A stretch of DNA of 64,000 bases, from NCBI RefSeq assembly GCF_010119975.1, contig NZ_CP048222.1, positions 8,780,501-8,844,500 of the forward strand, written 5' to 3'. Shown here one piece after another: positions 41,853 through 51,475 of the stretch. The stretch comes from Rhodocytophaga rosea. GTDB lineage: Bacteria; Bacteroidota; Bacteroidia; Cytophagales; 172606-1. The translations under genes were made by a program, and so were the position numbers. Below the pieces are notes generated by a model that was not told the origin of the DNA, did not search any database, and saw nothing but the letters and a program-made list of their open reading frames with translations. Position 1 is the first letter of the stretch; every line of letters begins with the position of its first letter.

Positions 41853-43313
41853 TTATTGCAAATTAGGATTAGCGGAGACTTCGGTAATGGGCAGCGGAAA
41901 TATATAGTCTTCTTTTGTAATGGATCCAATCGGATTCAGGTCCCAGGCATGTTTGCTGGCATTGGCAGTTTCTACCATTTCCAGGCGTACCAAATCAAAC
42001 CAGCGTGTTCTTTCTGCGGCAAACTCCCAGGAACGTTCATTAATTACTGCCATGGCAAAATCTTCTGCGGATAAACCACTCAAGGGTTCTAAACCAGCTC
42101 TCTGGCGAACAGCATTTAATGCATCATACGCTTGCTGATTCGGACCTCCGGAACGGGCTTTTGCTTCTGCATAAATGGTTAATACATGGGCATACCGCAT
42201 CATCACAAAAGGAAGAGAAGAAGCCCAGTCTTTTACATCGCCTTTTATCCAGAACTTTCCATAATACGGATGTTTTGTCTGGCTTTGTTCCCAGGGAACC
42301 ATGGTTCCATCAGAAAGCTTAAACTGGGTGCGGAACGTAGCATTTTTTCTGGGTCCGGCAGGAAAATTATTAAAGAAATTAACTTCTGCAAAATAATCAT
42401 CCCAACCAGATTCTTCTCCTGGCATAGCTGGGAAGCCGTAAGTAGCATTGGTAGCCTGGCCTACACCTTTAAAGGCTGATAATTGAAACACATGTTCTGG
42501 CAAAGTTGCCACGGTGGGGTCATTGTCAAATAAGGCGGCAAAGGTAGGCACCAGGTCAAATCCGTAGCTTGCTTTATTGTCTATTACTTCTTTTGCTTTT
42601 GCCGCAGCCAGCGCATATTTGGAAGCATCTTTTAAGGGCCATCCTGCCATGGTCAGGTATACATCCGCTAACAGTGCTTTTACAGAACCTTTATTTGGCC
42701 TGCCTGCATCTCTTTTGGTGTTTTGAATGAGTTCTTCTGCCTGCAATAAATCACTCACTATTAACTCATACACTTTATCGGGACCAGTTTTGCTAATGGT
42801 GAGCATATCCATGGTAAACTCAGCTTTTGTAACCAACGGAATATCTTTATATAATCTCACCAGCCAGTAATAGGATAAGGCACGCAGAAAATAAGCTTCG
42901 CCTACAATTTGTTGTATTTGCGCCTGGTCGCCGGTCGTATTTTGATAGTTAGCTAAAATATTGTTTGCGCCCTGAATGGTTTTATAACAGCCATTATATA
43001 GGTTACCTGTCCGGCTATTACCGGCAGAAACCGCGAACTGATCAAACTCCCTGAATTCTTGCTTGTTACTGGCAGGATGGGTAGTAACATCGTCGCCACC
43101 CATCGTAGCGCCTATGGCGGTTGGGTGCAGAAAGCCAGTACCCCAGGTTTGTGTTAAGCCTTTGTACGCCCCGGTTAATGCAGCATCTAATCCTTGTACA
43201 GAAGATAAAGCGGCTGTGCCCACTAATTGTCCTTGCAGGTCCTCTTCCAGGAAATCATTACAACCAGCGCCTGCTAATAAAACGGATATAAATAATATTT
43301 TTAGATTTTTCAT
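41853..43313 (-). CDS. SusD/RagB-family outer-membrane glycan-binding lipoprotein (SusD1)
   Basis: A 486-residue lipoprotein with lipobox cysteine Cys18 (LLAGAGCNDFLEE). SusD-type helical repeats follow, including YKTIQGANNILANY, GEAYFLRALSYYWLVRLYKD and a C-terminal NERSWEFAAERTRWFDLVRL motif near residue 440. The protein caps the extracellular mouth of the SusC transporter and captures oligosaccharides. It starts 20 bp after the SusC1 stop, the normal pairing. The end reads directly into an SDR remnant. The glycan bound cannot be determined. Confidence 0.95.
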   Translation of the reverse strand: MKNLKILFISVLLAGAGCNDFLEEDLQGQLVGTAALSSVQGLDAALTGAYKGLTQTWGTGFLHPTAIGATMGGDDVTTHPASNKQEFREFDQFAVSAGNSRTGNLYNGCYKTIQGANNILANYQNTTGDQAQIQQIVGEAYFLRALSYYWLVRLYKDIPLVTKAEFTMDMLTISKTGPDKVYELIVSDLLQAEELIQNTKRDAGRPNKGSVKALLADVYLTMAGWPLKDASKYALAAAKAKEVIDNKASYGFDLVPTFAALFDNDPTVATLPEHVFQLSAFKGVGQATNATYGFPAMPGEESGWDDYFAEVNFFNNFPAGPRKNATFRTQFKLSDGTMVPWEQSQTKHPYYGKFWIKGDVKDWASSLPFVMMRYAHVLTIYAEAKARSGGPNQQAYDALNAVRQRAGLEPLSGLSAEDFAMAVINERSWEFAAERTRWFDLVRLEMVETANASKHAWDLNPIGSITKEDYIFPLPITEVSANPNLQ

Positions 43314-43333: not shown

Positions 43334-46300
43334 TTAAAAAGTAAGATTGAGACCTGCTGTATAAATCTTTGAGTTGGGATAAGCTCCATAATCGATACCT
43401 AATGCCGTATCAGACCCATTTACAGAGCTGGATTCAGGATCAATTCCTTTGTATTTGGTGATGGTAATTAAATTGGTGCCACTTACAAATACCCGGATGG
43501 TGCCTACATTCCGAATCCATGAAGATGGCAGATTGTAGGATAAGCTGATGTTCTTTAATCGGACAAAATCCCCTTTTTCCATAAACCTGGTAGACTGGGT
43601 ATATACCCTGTTTGTGATGCTGAAAGCAGGAATATCTGATGTTTCATTTACGCCTGGAATGTAGCGGTTTTTGATATCTTCCAGAATGGGCTGACGGGCA
43701 TCCGCAGAGCCTGCAATCGCCGCTGCTCTGGTATAATTGAGTTTATCCACGCCAAAAATGCCCTGGAAAAATATATTGAGCGTAAGTCCTTTATAGGTGA
43801 ACGTATTGTTCCAACCTGCGGAAGTTCTGGGTATGCCACTGCCTATGATCTGGAAATCCTGGGTATTAATGGCTCCGTCATCATTCAAATCCTGGTATCT
43901 GGAATCACCTGTTTTCTCCCCGTATCTGGAGGCTTCATCTGCCTGGCCGGGCTTCCAGGTACCCAGATATTTCAGGCCCCAATACGCACCCAGCGCTTGT
44001 CCTGGTGCATACACATATTCAGATTGGGTAGACATGCCAGCGCCTACATTTGTATTGGTAAAGAGCTTATCTGCAATACCTCCTATGCTCACTACGGTAT
44101 TTTTTACATTGGAAATATTAAAGGCACTTGTCCAGTTAAAATCTCCTACTTCAAGCACGGTAGCTCCTAAAGAAAACTCCCATCCTTTATTCTGAATTTC
44201 ACCCAGATTCTGGGCAATATTCCCTCCGCCTACATAACCGGGTAAGGGCTGATTCAATAATAGGTCAGTGGTATTTTTAACAAAATAATCTCCTTCCAGG
44301 GTGATTCTTCCCTTCAGGAATTCCATTTCTGCGCCAATATTGAATTGCTCGGTGGTTTCCCACTTTAATTTAGGATTTCCAGGATTTCCCAGCATAATTC
44401 CACTGGAAGCACCTGTATTGTTAAAGGCAACCAATGGACTTGTGTTATAGGTGGATTGGGTTGCATACGAGTTGATCGCCTGGCTTCCGGTTAAACCCCA
44501 GCTGCCTCTGATTTTGAAATTATTGAATACATTCAGGTTCTTTAAAAATGGCTCTTCGGATACTCTCCAGCCTACGGCAATAGATGGGAATACGCTGTAT
44601 CTATTGCTTTTCTGAAATTTGGAAGACCCATCTCTCCGTAACGTACCAGAAATTAAGTATTTATCCTTGAATGAATAATTTACCCGGCCTAAATAAGATA
44701 ACAATGTCCATTTGGAATATCCTGAACCTATGGCATACGAACCAGCTAACCCAATATTATAATAGCCGAGGGAGGCATCTTTTAAGGTATTCCCTGTCGC
44801 ATTGAAAGAATTGCTGGTAAACTGCTGTGTTTCAAATACGCCTACCGCATCAATGGTATGCACTTCATTAAAGGTACGTTTGTAGCTTAGGGCATTGGTG
44901 CTTTGCAGGGTGATCTGTTCGGTAGATGCCCGGTAGGCACTTGGGTTATTTCTGGATACAAAGTTGCCATTAAATGTTTTATCCTGTTGATTTAAATAAT
45001 TGACAGCCAGCTGCACATCTAAAGCTAGTCCTTTAATAAACTCATACCTGGCCCCTCCTACTATATTTCCAAGCGAACGTTCCTGATCAATTTGCCTGTC
45101 ATTGATAAGTGCTACGGGGTTTGTGCCTACTGAACCCAACGGGTCATTCATGGTATATCCTCCGGTTGCATCCTTCACTGGCGTAGTCGGAGACCAGGCC
45201 AATGCCTGCACCACTGGATTACTTGTACCTGTCAGGATGCCAGTATTATGATTGATCAATCGGGAGCCTGTTACATTCAGCCGCAACGAAAATTTTTCGG
45301 ATACCTGGGAAGCGATGTTCGACCGGATGGAATACCGCTGGTAATCTGTATTTTGAATGATCCCTTCCTGATTAAGATAGTTGCCAGAGATAAGAAACGT
45401 TGTTTTTTCATTTCCACCCGAAACACCTAATTGGTGTTCTTGCCCAAGCGCTGTCCTGAATATTTCGTCTTGCCAGTCGGTGCCGCCAGTTCTTCTGAAT
45501 TCATCTACCTGATTTTGTGTAAAAACCTGTGAAGTACCAGTTGCTGCGGCACGTTCGTTAACTACCTGTGCAAAATCTCCGGCACTTAAGGTATTGTACA
45601 AGCCAATTACGTTTGAGGTAGATACCTGTCTGTTATAGTTTACCTTAATGCCACCTTTTGCGCCTCGTTTGGTAGTTATAATGACGACACCATTGGCTCC
45701 CCGGCTTCCATAAATAGCCGTAGATGAAGCATCTTTTAACACCTGAATAGATTCGATATCATTGGGATTGATCGTAGTAAAATCAGCGCCTACATAGCCG
45801 TCTACTACATATAAGGGGTTGTTGTCTCCGAAAATGGAATTAGCTCCTCTTACCCTGATTCTTACGCCACCTCCCGGAGCCCCACTGGCATTGGTTACTT
45901 GTACGCCGGTAGCCCTGCCCTGCAAAATCTGGTCTACACGGGTAACAGGCTGGGCTTCAAATTCCTTTACAGATATAGAAGCTAGAGAACCAGTTACATC
46001 TGTTTTCCGCTGTGTACCATAACCTACCACTACCACTTCGCTCAACGATTGAATATCAGGCATGAGCGACACATCAATGGTTGCCCGGTTATTGATCGGC
46101 ACTTCTTCGGTAGTAAAGCCAATATAAGAGAAAACCAGGGTGCCATTTCCATCCGGCGCATTCAGTGAATATTTGCCATCTACATCGGTAGTTGTACCCT
46201 GGCTGGTTCCTTTAATTACTACGTTTACACCAGGTAAATTCTGTCCCTGGTCGTCCGTAACTTTTCCGCTTATGCCTAACACGGCTGCATGGTTACTCAT

Positions 46301-46798
46301 TAATTGGACACTTGCCAGGTTTTCTAATGCCTCAAACTGGAACAGGTTTCTTGATGAGGAAAAAGGTTCTTTCTCAATTCTTTTAATTTCTTTCCTCTGC
46401 TTTTTTGAATAAATCAAGTAATTATTTTCGCTGAATTTTTCAAAAGTAAGCTCCAGCGGCTGCAATATTTCTGTAAGTGTTTTGTCCAGATTATTGCCGG
46501 TAAATGGCTGCTTTTGTACCGCTTTTCCTTCCAGAATCTGCTTTTCGTAATCGAATTTGACTTTATAGTGGGTAGACAATTCAGACAGGACTGTAATGAG
46601 TGACTTGTTATCCTGTAGCTGTTGTTTGCCCGGCTTTCTTTCGGGCATTGCTCTGTAAGAAGCTAGTTCCTGAGCCATGGATTGTAAAGGGATGCTGCTG
46701 ATAGCGATCAGCCACATTAACAGGATTTTTTTAGACAAGGAGTACCTTGCAGGTGTTAAATGTGTGCTCATAGAATATAAAATTTGGTTAGATTTCAA
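43334..46798 (-). CDS. SusC/RagA-family TonB-dependent transporter with STN domain (SusC1)
   Basis: A 1154-residue outer-membrane transporter. After the signal region (to ~42), an STN secretin/TonB short N-terminal domain occupies ~63-130 (SLITVLSELSTHYKVKFDYE). A carboxypeptidase-D-like beta sandwich is at ~175-250 (GISGKVTDDQGQNLPGVNVV), and the family motif SEVVVVGYGTQRKTDVTG at 253-270. The plug follows at ~270-375 and then the long 22-strand barrel. The STN domain lets substrate binding signal through FecR to the sigma factor encoded just upstream, so this is a self-inducing import system. The gene starts 24 bp after the FecR stop and is followed by SusD1. Confidence 0.95.
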   Translation of the reverse strand: MKSNQILYSMSTHLTPARYSLSKKILLMWLIAISSIPLQSMAQELASYRAMPERKPGKQQLQDNKSLITVLSELSTHYKVKFDYEKQILEGKAVQKQPFTGNNLDKTLTEILQPLELTFEKFSENNYLIYSKKQRKEIKRIEKEPFSSSRNLFQFEALENLASVQLMSNHAAVLGISGKVTDDQGQNLPGVNVVIKGTSQGTTTDVDGKYSLNAPDGNGTLVFSYIGFTTEEVPINNRATIDVSLMPDIQSLSEVVVVGYGTQRKTDVTGSLASISVKEFEAQPVTRVDQILQGRATGVQVTNASGAPGGGVRIRVRGANSIFGDNNPLYVVDGYVGADFTTINPNDIESIQVLKDASSTAIYGSRGANGVVIITTKRGAKGGIKVNYNRQVSTSNVIGLYNTLSAGDFAQVVNERAAATGTSQVFTQNQVDEFRRTGGTDWQDEIFRTALGQEHQLGVSGGNEKTTFLISGNYLNQEGIIQNTDYQRYSIRSNIASQVSEKFSLRLNVTGSRLINHNTGILTGTSNPVVQALAWSPTTPVKDATGGYTMNDPLGSVGTNPVALINDRQIDQERSLGNIVGGARYEFIKGLALDVQLAVNYLNQQDKTFNGNFVSRNNPSAYRASTEQITLQSTNALSYKRTFNEVHTIDAVGVFETQQFTSNSFNATGNTLKDASLGYYNIGLAGSYAIGSGYSKWTLLSYLGRVNYSFKDKYLISGTLRRDGSSKFQKSNRYSVFPSIAVGWRVSEEPFLKNLNVFNNFKIRGSWGLTGSQAINSYATQSTYNTSPLVAFNNTGASSGIMLGNPGNPKLKWETTEQFNIGAEMEFLKGRITLEGDYFVKNTTDLLLNQPLPGYVGGGNIAQNLGEIQNKGWEFSLGATVLEVGDFNWTSAFNISNVKNTVVSIGGIADKLFTNTNVGAGMSTQSEYVYAPGQALGAYWGLKYLGTWKPGQADEASRYGEKTGDSRYQDLNDDGAINTQDFQIIGSGIPRTSAGWNNTFTYKGLTLNIFFQGIFGVDKLNYTRAAAIAGSADARQPILEDIKNRYIPGVNETSDIPAFSITNRVYTQSTRFMEKGDFVRLKNISLSYNLPSSWIRNVGTIRVFVSGTNLITITKYKGIDPESSSVNGSDTALGIDYGAYPNSKIYTAGLNLTF

Positions 46799-46822: not shown

Positions 46823-47863
46823 TTATTTTTCATTGCTTTTCAGCATTACGCTATTCTCATTTCTGGTCACCCTGGCATCAAAAATTTTGGAGAGTTTAGA
46901 TAAAAGAATGTCTACTTTATCAGCAGGCGTAGAACCTGTATATCGTCTGTTCAGCAAGGTTGAATCCTGTATGTCTACCTTAAGGCCGTAATTATCTTCC
47001 AGCGTTTGTGCAATTTGCCAGAGGGGCGTATCATCAAAAGTGAGGATATTATTTTGCCAGGCGGTATAGGCTTCTGGCTGTACAATCCGGTTGGTAATGA
47101 TTTCTTCTTTGTCAGAAATTTCTACCAGCTGCCCTGGTTGCATAATCACATTCTTGACCTGGTTATTGCTTTCCAGGTTGAGTTTAACTTTGCCCGAACT
47201 CAACACTACTCTGGTATTACCCCGGCGGTTATTTACATTGAATGTAGTGCCGAGTACTTCTATACTGGCATCCTCTGAGGTAATGACAATAAACTTCTGG
47301 TGATTGGCTGTATGTACCACCGAGAAAAAGGCCTCCCCTTCCAGGCGAACTTCCCTGTTTTGTGTATCAGTCCATTTATCAGCTAATTCAAGCCTGGAGT
47401 TTGCATTTAGTGTGACTACCGACTGATCTGGCAAGGTTATCGTCTTGGTTTCTCTATAGCCAGTAGTATAGATAATGGTAGCGTTAAACTTAAAAGTATA
47501 GAGTAAAAAACCTGCAATCATGATTATCCCAATCCATACAGCGGCCATCTTGACCAAGCGATTATGAATGAAGCTTCTGTGAGAATTAACTTTTTCAGGC
47601 TTGATAAAGGGTTCTTCCTGAATGGTATGAGTAATCCGTTTAAAAATATCTTCTACCCGGTGTTCCTCTAAAACCGTAGTCTTGAATCCCATCAGCAATA
47701 CCAGTTCTCTGGCTTCTTCTACAATAGGTTTTTTTTGGGGATGTTGTGCCAGCCATGTTTCCCAGAATTGATTGGTAGCTGCATTGGGATGGTTTACCCA
47801 TTGTTCAAAAAAACGATCAGCAGCAAAATCTTCTACTGAATACTCTGAGTAATCTTTAGCCAT
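46823..47863 (-). CDS. FecR-family anti-sigma factor/transmembrane signal protein
   Basis: A 346-residue protein. The N-terminal ~90 residues are cytoplasmic and should hold the sigma factor; a membrane helix lies at ~106-125 (KMAAVWIGIIMIAGFLLYTF). A periplasmic FecR domain follows at ~130-235 (ITLPDQSVVTLNANSRLEL and VLGTTFNVNNRRGNTRVVLS). The C-terminal DUF4974 region spans ~270-345 (LTFDDTPLWQIAQTLEDNYG) and contacts the STN domain of SusC. It lies between the sigma gene and SusC1, in the usual order for cell-surface signalling. Interval to the sigma gene 210 bp. Confidence 0.95.
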   Translation of the reverse strand: MAKDYSEYSVEDFAADRFFEQWVNHPNAATNQFWETWLAQHPQKKPIVEEARELVLLMGFKTTVLEEHRVEDIFKRITHTIQEEPFIKPEKVNSHRSFIHNRLVKMAAVWIGIIMIAGFLLYTFKFNATIIYTTGYRETKTITLPDQSVVTLNANSRLELADKWTDTQNREVRLEGEAFFSVVHTANHQKFIVITSEDASIEVLGTTFNVNNRRGNTRVVLSSGKVKLNLESNNQVKNVIMQPGQLVEISDKEEIITNRIVQPEAYTAWQNNILTFDDTPLWQIAQTLEDNYGLKVDIQDSTLLNRRYTGSTPADKVDILLSKLSKIFDARVTRNENSVMLKSNEK

Positions 47864-48073: not shown

Positions 48074-49132
48074 TCAGAACAAGAGAGGGAGAAAAGAGGA
48101 AATAGAAGTACTAAAATGATGGAGCATCAACAAAACGGGAATCAGATGCACAAGATTTTTACGAAGTTCAGACAGCGCCATGTACACAAAATTATAGGCA
48201 GTTTTCACTGTAATGGACATCACCGAAGCAATTTCTTCGTAGGAAAAACCTTCATAAAACCGTAAAAAGATGGCTTCCCGTTGCCTATCTGAAAGGGTAC
48301 GTAAGGCGGCTGCCAGGTTTTTTTCTTGCTCCTGGGTAATCTGACTGGTGATAAGGGCAAATTCGTGGGAAAAAACAAACTCAAAATTATAGTCTTCAAC
48401 AAGATAGTGTTGTGCAGATTTTTTTCCTAACGAACGGATGAGCTTCCGTTTCAAGGATTTAAAAAGATAATACTTGATAGAATTCACTTCACACAGATTT
48501 TGCCGGCTTTTCCAGAGTTCTACAAATAAATCATGTATACAATCTTCTACAAGTGCCCGATCGGACGTGATTTTGCTGCCAAAATTATATAGGGGCTGAA
48601 TATGTTTTTTATAAATACTGGTAAAGGCTGTATAATCTCCTTTTTTAAAATCCTCCCATATTTTCCTATCTTCAGTTATCCCTTCTGTTATTTTACTATT
48701 CAGTAAGTACTTGTTTTCAGCCATAGAGGTTTGGAGCATGTCTTCCAGAAGCTGGCGGCAAAAAAATACATCCACCCGTTGCATACACCTTTTAGCATCA
48801 TTCCAAATAAAGATTTCCTGCCCATTGCTCTGATAGGCAAATGGACGGAAAGGCTGTTTTTTTTCAAGCTGATTGATATACTCTACTGCTTTGTATTCTC
48901 CAATCTCTAAGTCCTTGCAGGTAAACTGAACTTCGATAATAGCTAATACTTGTCCATTCTCCCGGTAGAGGCAATAATCATATAAACCGGACTCTGAAGA
49001 TTGAATATAGGTAACTAAAGGGAGTGTAAGCGATACCTGAGAGGGATCATCCGTTTTCCATCCTGCCTGCTGCAACAGCTGACTAATCGTAACATGTAGG
49101 GAATGTATATCCTTTAGTGTATGTGCAGCCAT
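48074..49132 (-). CDS. ECF sigma factor fused to an HsdR-N-like (PD-(D/E)xK fold) domain
   Basis: A 352-residue single frame. Residues ~155-330 are an ordinary SusC-associated ECF sigma factor: region 2 with SDRALVEDCIHDLFVELWKS (~190-209) and region 4 with LSDRQREAIFLRFYEGFSYE (~280-299) and EIASVMSITVKTAYNFVYMA. Residues ~1-135 are extra. They read SLTLPLVTYIQS, GLYDYCLYRENGQVLAIIEV, then QFTCKDLEIGEYKAVEYINQ and FAYQSNGQEIFIWN, the layout of the HsdR N-terminal nuclease domain: D at 52, then E67-V-Q69 where E-x-K is usual. The lysine loss argues against cleavage. Sigma-only translation from Met137 is possible and would give a normal 216-residue protein. It heads the FecR-SusC1-SusD1 group. 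The fusion is unusual in my knowledge; the HsdR-N assignment is by motif layout. Confidence 0.8.
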   Translation of the reverse strand: MAAHTLKDIHSLHVTISQLLQQAGWKTDDPSQVSLTLPLVTYIQSSESGLYDYCLYRENGQVLAIIEVQFTCKDLEIGEYKAVEYINQLEKKQPFRPFAYQSNGQEIFIWNDAKRCMQRVDVFFCRQLLEDMLQTSMAENKYLLNSKITEGITEDRKIWEDFKKGDYTAFTSIYKKHIQPLYNFGSKITSDRALVEDCIHDLFVELWKSRQNLCEVNSIKYYLFKSLKRKLIRSLGKKSAQHYLVEDYNFEFVFSHEFALITSQITQEQEKNLAAALRTLSDRQREAIFLRFYEGFSYEEIASVMSITVKTAYNFVYMALSELRKNLVHLIPVLLMLHHFSTSISSFLPLLF

Positions 49133-49294: not shown

Positions 49295-51475
49295 TTATTT
49301 ACCGGACGGCAAGGCAAATGCCATGTATAAGCCACCAGGTTTGTGGCCATTTTTGACTCCGCCAGCAGCAATTACCACATATTGTTTACCTGCTGCCTGA
49401 TACGTAATGGGTGTTGCAAAACCTCCGGCCGGAAGCTGGTATTCCCAGACTACTTTTCCGGTTTTTTTATCAAAGGCACGGAATTTTTCATCTTTTGTTC
49501 CTCCAATAAATAGCAATCCGCCTGCGGTTGCTACCGGGCCGCCATAATTTTCGGTTCCTGTTTGCAGAATACTTTTTTTGGCTAATTCCGGAAATTCACC
49601 CAGAGGCACTTTCCATAGATATTCGCCGGTATTCAGGTCAATCGCATTCAGGGTTCCCCAGGGTGGTTTTACTGCCGGATATCCATTGGGATCAAAGAAT
49701 TTTACCCAGCCATTGTTAACAAAAGGCGGTTCATAGGGAAATTTGGCTTTCTTTTCTGCAGATACTTCAGGTGCTTGCCCATGTTCAGGGGAAGAATTTG
49801 ACTTATTTTCTATGTTAAGCAAGTAACTTACAATTGCATTGCGGTCTCTGCCAGACAGATGGGCAAAAGCAGGCATACGGCCTTTGCCGGTTTTGATGGT
49901 GGTTTGAATTTCTTCCTTTGAAAGCCGGTTTCCAATATTCACCAGACTGGGATAGCCTTGTCCACTTCCTTTCCGGTCTACCCCATGGCAGGATACACAA
50001 TTTGTCTGGTAAAGGGTTTTTCCCATGGAAGTGATCTCTTTGTTTCTGGTGGCAATATCCACCATGCGTAGATCCCAAACCGCTTCATTCGAATTCTGAT
50101 ACAAGATTCCCTCCGGATCTGCAGCGTTGCCTCCCCACTCGGCACCTCCGCCCATGCCATAAATCAAGGTACCTTCCATACTGGGTGGCATATACTTATT
50201 GCCGGAACGGGTTTGCCTGAACCGCTCTTTTACAAAAGCATTTGCTTCAGGCGATATATCCGTTATATCTGCTTCTGTAAATACTTGCCTGGAAAAAGGA
50301 GCAGGCTTTAAAGGAAAAGGTTGGGTAGGCCAGGGATGTTCCCCTGGCAAGGCATCAGCCGTTGAGACCGGCCGTTCTTCTACCGGAAAAAGCGGTTTTC
50401 CTGTATCCCGGTCAAGCAGGAAGATCAGGCCATCTTTGGTAGCTTGCGCCACAGCATCTATTTTTCGTCCATTATGAGTGACCGTTACCAGGTTGGGCGG
50501 ACAAGGCAAATCACGGTCCCATAGATCATGATGCACGGTCTGGAAATGCCATACCCGTTTACCAGTTTCGGCATTAAGGGCAAGAATACAATTAGCAAAC
50601 AGATTTTGTCCTTTCCGGTTGCCGCCATAAAAATCAAAAGAAGCAGAGCCCGTTCCCATATACACAATCCCCCGCTTTTCGTCTAGCACCATACCACTCC
50701 ATGCATTTGCACCGCCTATGTTTTTATACGCCTCCGGTGGCCAGGTTTCGTAACCCACTTCGCCAGGCTGGGGGATGGTATGAAAAATCCACCGCAATTT
50801 TCCGGTCCGGACATCAAATCCCCGAACATGGCCTGGCGCTGCATCGCCAAATTCCGATACAGACGAACCCAGAACAAGAACATCTTTATAAATCACGCCA
50901 GGAGAAGTAGCAGTTACCGATAGATTTTTTACTTCAAATGCTACATTTTCCCCCAGGCCTTCATGTAAATCCACTTCACCGTTTGTACCAAAACTGGTAA
51001 TAGGTTCGCCCGTCAGCGCATGGATGGCATACAGTGTAGGACCGGCTGTGTAAAGAATGCGTTTATCATTTCCATCTTCCCAGTACATTACTCCTCTGTT
51101 AGAATGATACCTGGGTCCTTTATTTTTAAAGGGATCAAATCTCCAGAGCTGTTTTCCGGTAGCCGCATCCAAGGCAAATAATTTTAGCATAGGCGAAGTT
51201 CCATACAATACACCCTGTACCACAATGGGCTGGCATTGAATCTCCATCGCTCTTCCGGTTTTATTTTCTGTAGAATCTTCAGCTGCCTTATAGGTCCAGG
51301 CAACCTGGAGTTGAGATACATTCTGGAGAGTAATCTGGTTGAGGGTAGAATACCGGTTACCGGCGTTATTGCCACCATAAACTGGCCAATCCTGAGTAGT
51401 TTTTTGCTGATTTTGGGAAGTGCAGTTAATAAGCCCTACCCAAACCATTACAAATAGGTAAAAAGACCTCTTCAT
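49295..51475 (-). CDS. PQQ-dependent dehydrogenase lipoprotein with cytochrome c domain
   Basis: A 726-residue quinoprotein. Lipobox cysteine Cys18 (VGLINCTS) makes it a lipoprotein. An eight-bladed propeller of the glucose/alcohol dehydrogenase type spans most of the chain, with W-motif blades such as AATGKQLWRFDPFKNKG, NAETGKRVWHFQTVHHDLWD and DKKTGKVVWEYQLPAGG. A cytochrome c module is inserted with CVSCH at 493-497 and axial Met in GKGRMPAF, then the last blades follow. Such enzymes oxidise aldoses, polyols or alcohols in the periplasm and hand electrons to the respiratory chain. It is the last gene of the SusC2 block, suggesting oxidation of the imported sugar. Confidence 0.9.
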   Translation of the reverse strand: MKRSFYLFVMVWVGLINCTSQNQQKTTQDWPVYGGNNAGNRYSTLNQITLQNVSQLQVAWTYKAAEDSTENKTGRAMEIQCQPIVVQGVLYGTSPMLKLFALDAATGKQLWRFDPFKNKGPRYHSNRGVMYWEDGNDKRILYTAGPTLYAIHALTGEPITSFGTNGEVDLHEGLGENVAFEVKNLSVTATSPGVIYKDVLVLGSSVSEFGDAAPGHVRGFDVRTGKLRWIFHTIPQPGEVGYETWPPEAYKNIGGANAWSGMVLDEKRGIVYMGTGSASFDFYGGNRKGQNLFANCILALNAETGKRVWHFQTVHHDLWDRDLPCPPNLVTVTHNGRKIDAVAQATKDGLIFLLDRDTGKPLFPVEERPVSTADALPGEHPWPTQPFPLKPAPFSRQVFTEADITDISPEANAFVKERFRQTRSGNKYMPPSMEGTLIYGMGGGAEWGGNAADPEGILYQNSNEAVWDLRMVDIATRNKEITSMGKTLYQTNCVSCHGVDRKGSGQGYPSLVNIGNRLSKEEIQTTIKTGKGRMPAFAHLSGRDRNAIVSYLLNIENKSNSSPEHGQAPEVSAEKKAKFPYEPPFVNNGWVKFFDPNGYPAVKPPWGTLNAIDLNTGEYLWKVPLGEFPELAKKSILQTGTENYGGPVATAGGLLFIGGTKDEKFRAFDKKTGKVVWEYQLPAGGFATPITYQAAGKQYVVIAAGGVKNGHKPGGLYMAFALPSGK

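What the first reader, a model, noticed from the sequence alone, without database searches (positions are those of the whole stretch)
48074..49132. ECF sigma factor with an N-terminal HsdR-like nuclease-fold domain
The sigma factor of the SusC1/SusD1 locus is preceded in the same frame by ~135 residues whose motif order (D52; E67-V-Q69; hydrophobic strands; FAYQSNGQEIFIWN) follows the N-terminal domain of type I restriction HsdR proteins. Sigma factors of this kind are normally ~190 residues and start at region 2. The Lys of the E-x-K motif is Gln, so the domain probably binds DNA or a partner rather than cutting. It could give promoter selectivity, link glycan-import signalling to foreign DNA, or be a captured domain. 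In my knowledge such a fusion is not a described architecture.
Basis: partly seen in the sequence, partly recalled or inferred. Interest (0 to 1): 0.8.

Follow-up and report, generated by a model that had tools for sequence, protein, structure and literature searches.

The report
Sigma factor wearing dead nuclease domain
In one bacterium of the order Cytophagales (as far as the tools place it), a regulator protein that turns on nutrient-uptake genes carries at its front a folded but chemically disabled piece of a DNA-cutting defence enzyme, a combination that I found in no other genome searched.

Summary
ORF 48074-49132 (-) encodes 352 aa. Residues 153-352 are an ordinary FecI-type ECF sigma factor, next to FecR, SusC and SusD genes. 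Residues 1-136 are a complete HsdR N-terminal PD-(D/E)xK domain. They align without gaps, from the start Met, to N termini of one HsdR subfamily (35-37% identity), and the predicted fold matches HsdR 3h1t (Z 13.0). The nuclease is almost certainly dead: K69Q and Q81K, plus loss of T11, R12 and E36, at positions 99-100% conserved in 89 HsdR proteins. D52, E67 and Y85 remain. The branch is very long (2.34 versus at most 0.75). Even so, the frame shows no stop or indel, the hydrophobic core is kept (37/42), and a neutral-decay simulation gives P(0 stops) of at most 0.0075. The domain therefore diverged under selection for its fold, not for catalysis. No second fusion was found in about 1,200 related genomes or in a motif scan of 84,980 species. 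Best reading: a captured, nuclease-dead module appended to the sigma factor, acting through protein contacts. Its function is inferred. Whether translation starts at Met1 or also at Met137 is untested. It is a new variant of N-terminally extended ECF factors, known from one genome.

The parts
48074..49132 (-). fusion gene, 352 aa: HsdR-N domain + ECF sigma factor
48725..49132 (-). residues 1-136, HsdR N-terminal PD-(D/E)xK-fold domain, complete from start Met
48977..48979 (-). D52, motif II Asp, kept
48932..48934 (-). E67, motif III Glu, kept
48926..48928 (-). Q69 in place of the catalytic Lys (K in 89 of 89 HsdR)
   Evidence: K167A of EcoR124I gave no DNA cleavage, PMC2602864
48890..48892 (-). 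K81 in place of the near-invariant Gln (99% in HsdR)
48677..48724 (-). residues 137-152, low-confidence linker starting at Met137 (possible alternative start); marginal HsdR-linker similarity
48074..48676 (-). residues 153-352, ECF sigma factor with hydrophobic C-terminal helix
48416..48616 (-). sigma region 2 (residues 173-239)
48164..48319 (-). sigma region 4 (residues 272-323)
46823..47863 (-). FecR anti-sigma factor
43334..46798 (-). SusC-type TonB-dependent receptor
41853..43313 (-). SusD-type lipoprotein

Best explanation
A gene fusion joined the N-terminal nuclease-fold domain of a type I restriction HsdR subunit, with its own start codon, in frame to the FecI-like sigma factor of a SusC/SusD-FecR uptake locus (shown: homology and boundaries). 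The domain then lost its cutting residues but kept its fold (shown: residue pattern, gapless frame, core retention; predicted: fold). Inferred: the long protein is made from Met1, and the domain is tethered by a flexible linker in front of sigma region 2. There it acts as a regulatory or stabilising appendage, through contacts with the sigma factor itself, FecR, RNA polymerase or another protein, rather than by cutting or strongly binding DNA. The sigma factor otherwise works conventionally: FecR is expected to hold it until the SusC receptor signals, after which it transcribes its target genes.
For: Gapless alignment to HsdR N termini from Met1. HsdR profile 113.6 bits. AF2 domain model pLDDT 74, pTM 0.72, with block means around 90 over much of the domain in the full-length run. 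Structural match to HsdR 3h1t, Z 13.0, rmsd 4.0 over 131 residues, and to EcoR124I HsdR 2w00, Z 7.7. K69, Q81, E36, R12 and T11 lost although 99-100% conserved in 89 HsdR; D52, E67, Y85 and W25 kept. K167A of EcoR124I HsdR, the equivalent Lys, gave no cleavage (PMC2602864). Branch 2.34 versus at most 0.75 for any other tip. Neutral decay to the same identity leaves no stop in 0.25-0.75% of runs, and would produce about 10-20 indels at assumed indel rates where none is seen. Substitutions are more conservative than neutral. Hydrophobic core kept in 37/42 columns but charged columns in only 11/23. Codon usage is coding-like in this frame. Residues 141-152 are a low-confidence linker. The FecR/SusC/SusD context is normal.
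Against: Seen in one genome only, so conservation of the fusion itself cannot be tested. The Met1 start context (C at -3, G at -6) is poorer than Met137 (A at -6, as in 7 of 8 neighbouring genes). Much of the divergence, and of the selection that kept the frame, could predate the fusion. No contact between the two parts is predicted (pTM 0.43). No regulatory role was tested.
Confidence: 0.55

Rival explanations
1. Captured remnant. A decaying HsdR gene lies in frame just upstream of the sigma gene, the sigma factor is translated from Met137 (and perhaps also as a read-through long form), and the domain has no function today.
For: Met137 lies 22 residues before the region-2 Trp, within the range of starts in homologues. 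Met137 has A at -6, unlike Met1. Many relatives of this HsdR subfamily are broken, for example L106, where the N domain is joined to the HsdR tail and D52 is Gly. The fusion is confined to one genome.
Against: No stop or indel in 136 codons at 37% identity; neutral simulation P(0 stops) at most 0.0075; conservative substitutions; core retained while charges are lost. A remnant would have to be recent, with the divergence earlier in a separately selected, already nuclease-dead protein.
Confidence: 0.28
2. The dead nuclease fold still binds DNA and adds promoter selectivity or affinity to the sigma factor.
For: PD-(D/E)xK domains bind DNA (general knowledge), and D52, E67 and Y85 are kept.
Against: T11, R12, K69 and Q81 are lost; Lys+Arg is 12 versus at least 15 in all 44 close HsdR; net charge -5, pI 5.1.
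Confidence: 0.1
3. The domain docks to a restriction or defence complex (HsdM/HsdS-like) and couples the sigma factor to foreign-DNA detection.
For: Origin from HsdR only.
Against: No hsd genes among the neighbouring genes identified; HsdR generally needs its helicase and C-terminal parts for assembly (general knowledge), and these are absent; no conserved fusion.
Confidence: 0.04

Closest known systems
HsdR N-terminal nuclease domain (PF04313 / EcoAI-type NF046051; 935-938-aa HsdR of L066, L067, L080)
   Same: sequence from the start Met, order of motifs, predicted fold
   Different: catalytic Lys and Gln lost; no helicase or C-terminal domains; fused to a sigma factor
FecI-like ECF sigma factors of Bacteroidota Sus loci (TIGR02985, Sig70_bacteroi1)
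   Same: regions 2 and 4, FecR and SusC/D neighbours, up to 49% identity
   Different: none of the homologues examined has an N-terminal domain; this one scores below the TIGR02985 cut-off (98 versus 126.4)
ECF sigma factors with N-terminal extensions (former ECF87-89 of Planctomycetes; ECF36 with a DUF2275 transmembrane anti-sigma fusion)
   Same: an extra domain before region 2 (PMC8103513; PMC8999054)
   Different: the word nuclease does not occur in those two reviews; here a separate FecR gene is present
ECF41, ECF42 and ECF56-type factors with C-terminal SnoaL_2 or TPR domains
   Same: a captured domain regulating sigma activity (PMC3426412, PMC7730460; PMC8103513)
   Different: the extension is C-terminal, and these are widespread families

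Membership tests
HsdR type I restriction subunit | N-terminal PD-(D/E)xK fold domain | tested here: met
HsdR type I restriction subunit | catalytic D, E-x-K and Q residues | tested here: not met
   K69Q and Q81K; D52 and E67 kept
HsdR type I restriction subunit | SF2 helicase motor and C-terminal assembly domain in the same chain | tested here: not met
   sigma regions follow instead
HsdR type I restriction subunit | hsdM and hsdS partners nearby | tested here: inconclusive
   neighbours are PQQ dehydrogenase, FecR, SusC/D and MLE genes; the whole window was not annotated
ECF sigma factor (FecI-like) | regions 2 and 4 only, no region 1 or 3 | tested here: met
ECF sigma factor (FecI-like) | FecR anti-sigma and TonB-dependent receptor beside it | tested here: met
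ECF sigma factor (FecI-like) | drives promoter-specific transcription under FecR control | not testable with these tools
   needs experiment
ECF with N-terminal regulatory extension | folded domain fused before region 2 | tested here: met
   translation from Met1 not shown
ECF with N-terminal regulatory extension | extension modulates sigma activity | not testable with these tools
   needs deletion or truncation assay

The most novel reading that the evidence does not exclude
A restriction-enzyme nuclease domain was domesticated as a non-catalytic sensor or docking module on a sigma factor, giving RNA polymerase a new input (a partner or ligand once used by the restriction machinery) at a glycan-uptake locus.
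Probability: 0.12. Interest if true: 0.75.

Novelty: new variant of a known kind. Interest (0 to 1): 0.42.

Why it matters
It would be a clear case of a restriction nuclease domain stripped of catalysis and put to a new use on a transcription factor. How N-terminal extensions regulate ECF sigma factors is an open question: a 2021 review reports no mechanistic information on them (PMC8103513). Here the extension has a known fold and known ancestral chemistry, so truncation experiments are simple to design. Because it is known from one genome, it may also be an evolutionary accident.

Tried and rejected
Chance resemblance: rejected. Pure neutral remnant of long standing: disfavoured. Other sigma factors with long open frames in G003 (307-333 aa) as further fusions: rejected, because their upstream frames show no HsdR similarity and look like non-coding read-through. 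Short HsdR-like frames (L076, L078, L099, L106, L108, L112 and others) as sigma fusions: rejected; they are truncated, frameshifted or contig-edge HsdR genes. Viral, phage and plasmid collections: HsdR-like matches or nothing, no fusion seen. Orthologous locus in the same genus for codon-level tests: absent, best FecR about 41% and best sigma 48%. HsdR homology continuing past residue 136 into the linker: marginal, shuffle p = 0.05. Promoter search: only weak one-mismatch Bacteroidota-type sites, one upstream of Met1 (49215/49193) and one inside the domain (48867/48845), undecided. Repeats around the gene: nothing that looks like an insertion scar. Foldseek alone was weak (best E 0.024, still HsdR 3h1t). 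VIA-align was a re-ranking of Foldseek's list, and its lower rows are common nuclease folds.

Full report
Observation. The ORF at 48074-49132 on the minus strand opens with ATG and encodes 352 residues. Pfam and NCBIfam place sigma-70 regions 2 and 4 at residues 173-239 and 272-323, with TIGR02985 (Bacteroidota sigma factor) as best model. The flanking genes are FecR, a SusC-type receptor and a SusD-type lipoprotein: a usual receptor-FecR-sigma locus. Upstream lies a PQQ dehydrogenase with a cytochrome c domain.

The first 136 residues. They match HsdR proteins. The best place outside the window is the N terminus of 935-938-aa HsdR proteins (E 1e-28 and 2e-27). The alignment from Met1 to residue 136 has no gap and 35-37% identity, and the start Met of the fusion aligns with the start Met of HsdR. 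A scan of 84,980 species found 44 relatives. Those with a complete open frame are HsdR, with no sigma factor behind the domain, and the short ones are broken HsdR genes or contig ends. An AlphaFold2 model of residues 1-154 (pLDDT 74, pTM 0.72) is closest to the HsdR fragment 3h1t (Z 13.0, 131 residues, rmsd 4.0), followed by other restriction enzymes including EcoR124I HsdR. In the full-length model residues 141-152 form a low-confidence linker, and the low pTM (0.43) leaves the placement of the two parts open.

Catalysis. Among 89 HsdR domains, D52, E67 and Y85 are essentially invariant, and the window keeps them. K69 (89/89) is Gln here and Q81 (99%) is Lys. E36, T11 and R12 (99-100%) are also lost, and E8 is Asp. 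In EcoR124I the equivalent K167A gave no DNA cleavage (PMC2602864). The domain is therefore very probably not a nuclease.

Decay or reuse? In a tree with 44 close and 11 other HsdR domains, the window branch is 2.34 substitutions per site, and the next longest tip is 0.75. Exact placement inside the subfamily has weak support (47-73). If this divergence were neutral, simulation from three extant relatives predicts about five stop codons; only 0.25-0.75% of runs show none. About ten or more indels would also be expected at assumed rates, and none is seen. The substitutions are more conservative than neutral. Of 42 hydrophobic columns 37 stay hydrophobic, while only 11 of 23 charged columns stay charged. 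Lys+Arg falls to 12, below all 44 close HsdR (minimum 15), and Gln rises to 14 (maximum 9). So the fold was maintained while the active site and the positive charge were not. The caveat is that part of this history may predate the fusion.

Distribution. The domain and sigma factor are joined only in this genome. This was tested in 8 genomes of the family, about 390 of the order, 395 of the class and 395 of the phylum, and by the motif scan of 84,980 species. The order, class and phylum samples are subsets, and the motif scan could miss diverged copies. The sigma/FecR locus itself has no close orthologue in the family (best 49% and about 45%).

Translation start. Sigma homologues start roughly 8 to 35 residues before the region-2 Trp (W159 here). 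Met137 is 22 before it, so it could be the old sigma start. Met137 has A at -6, as do seven of eight neighbouring genes, and Met1 does not. Bacteroidota lack Shine-Dalgarno sequences, and A at -3 is a positive determinant of initiation (PMC6847099 abstract). The long form, the short form or both may be made, and sequence alone cannot decide.

Mechanism. Shown: homology, boundaries, loss of catalytic residues, intact frame. Predicted: fold, flexible linker. Inferred: the domain acts as a protein-contact appendage in front of region 2 that tunes stability, FecR capture or holoenzyme formation. Reviews describe N-terminally extended ECF factors (Planctomycetes, ECF36) but mention no nuclease (PMC8103513, PMC8999054). 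My paper searches found no HsdR-sigma fusion. The library holds open-licence papers only, so absence there is weak evidence.

Verdict. The domain is real and so, at DNA level, is the fusion. The function is unproven and the case rests on one genome. I file it as a new variant of a known kind: an ECF sigma factor with an N-terminal extension.

Noticed in passing
L106:326-886: Terrimonas pollutisoli carries a 187-aa remnant of the same HsdR subfamily: the N domain joined directly to the HsdR C-terminal tail by an internal deletion, with D52 changed to Gly. It shows how free N domains can arise.
   Followed up: partly
L076, L078, L083, L093, L099, L108, L112: Many members of this HsdR subfamily are truncated or frameshifted in place, so the subfamily is often inactivated.
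   Followed up: partly
window 48074-48160: After region 4 the sigma factor ends in a hydrophobic stretch (HLIPVLLMLHHFSTSISSFLPLLF) predicted as a helix. Several FecI-like homologues in the family end in similar Leu-rich tails.
   Followed up: no
G000:C1:2981572-2981763 (L062) and G000:C1:4495379-4495552 (L063): The same genome holds two further short frames (95 and 155 aa) with HSDR_N matches (L062 over the Pfam cut-off, L063 below it) that are not similar to this domain.
   Followed up: no
window 49298-51475: PQQ/cytochrome c dehydrogenase with six other full or partial matches in the genome.
   Followed up: no
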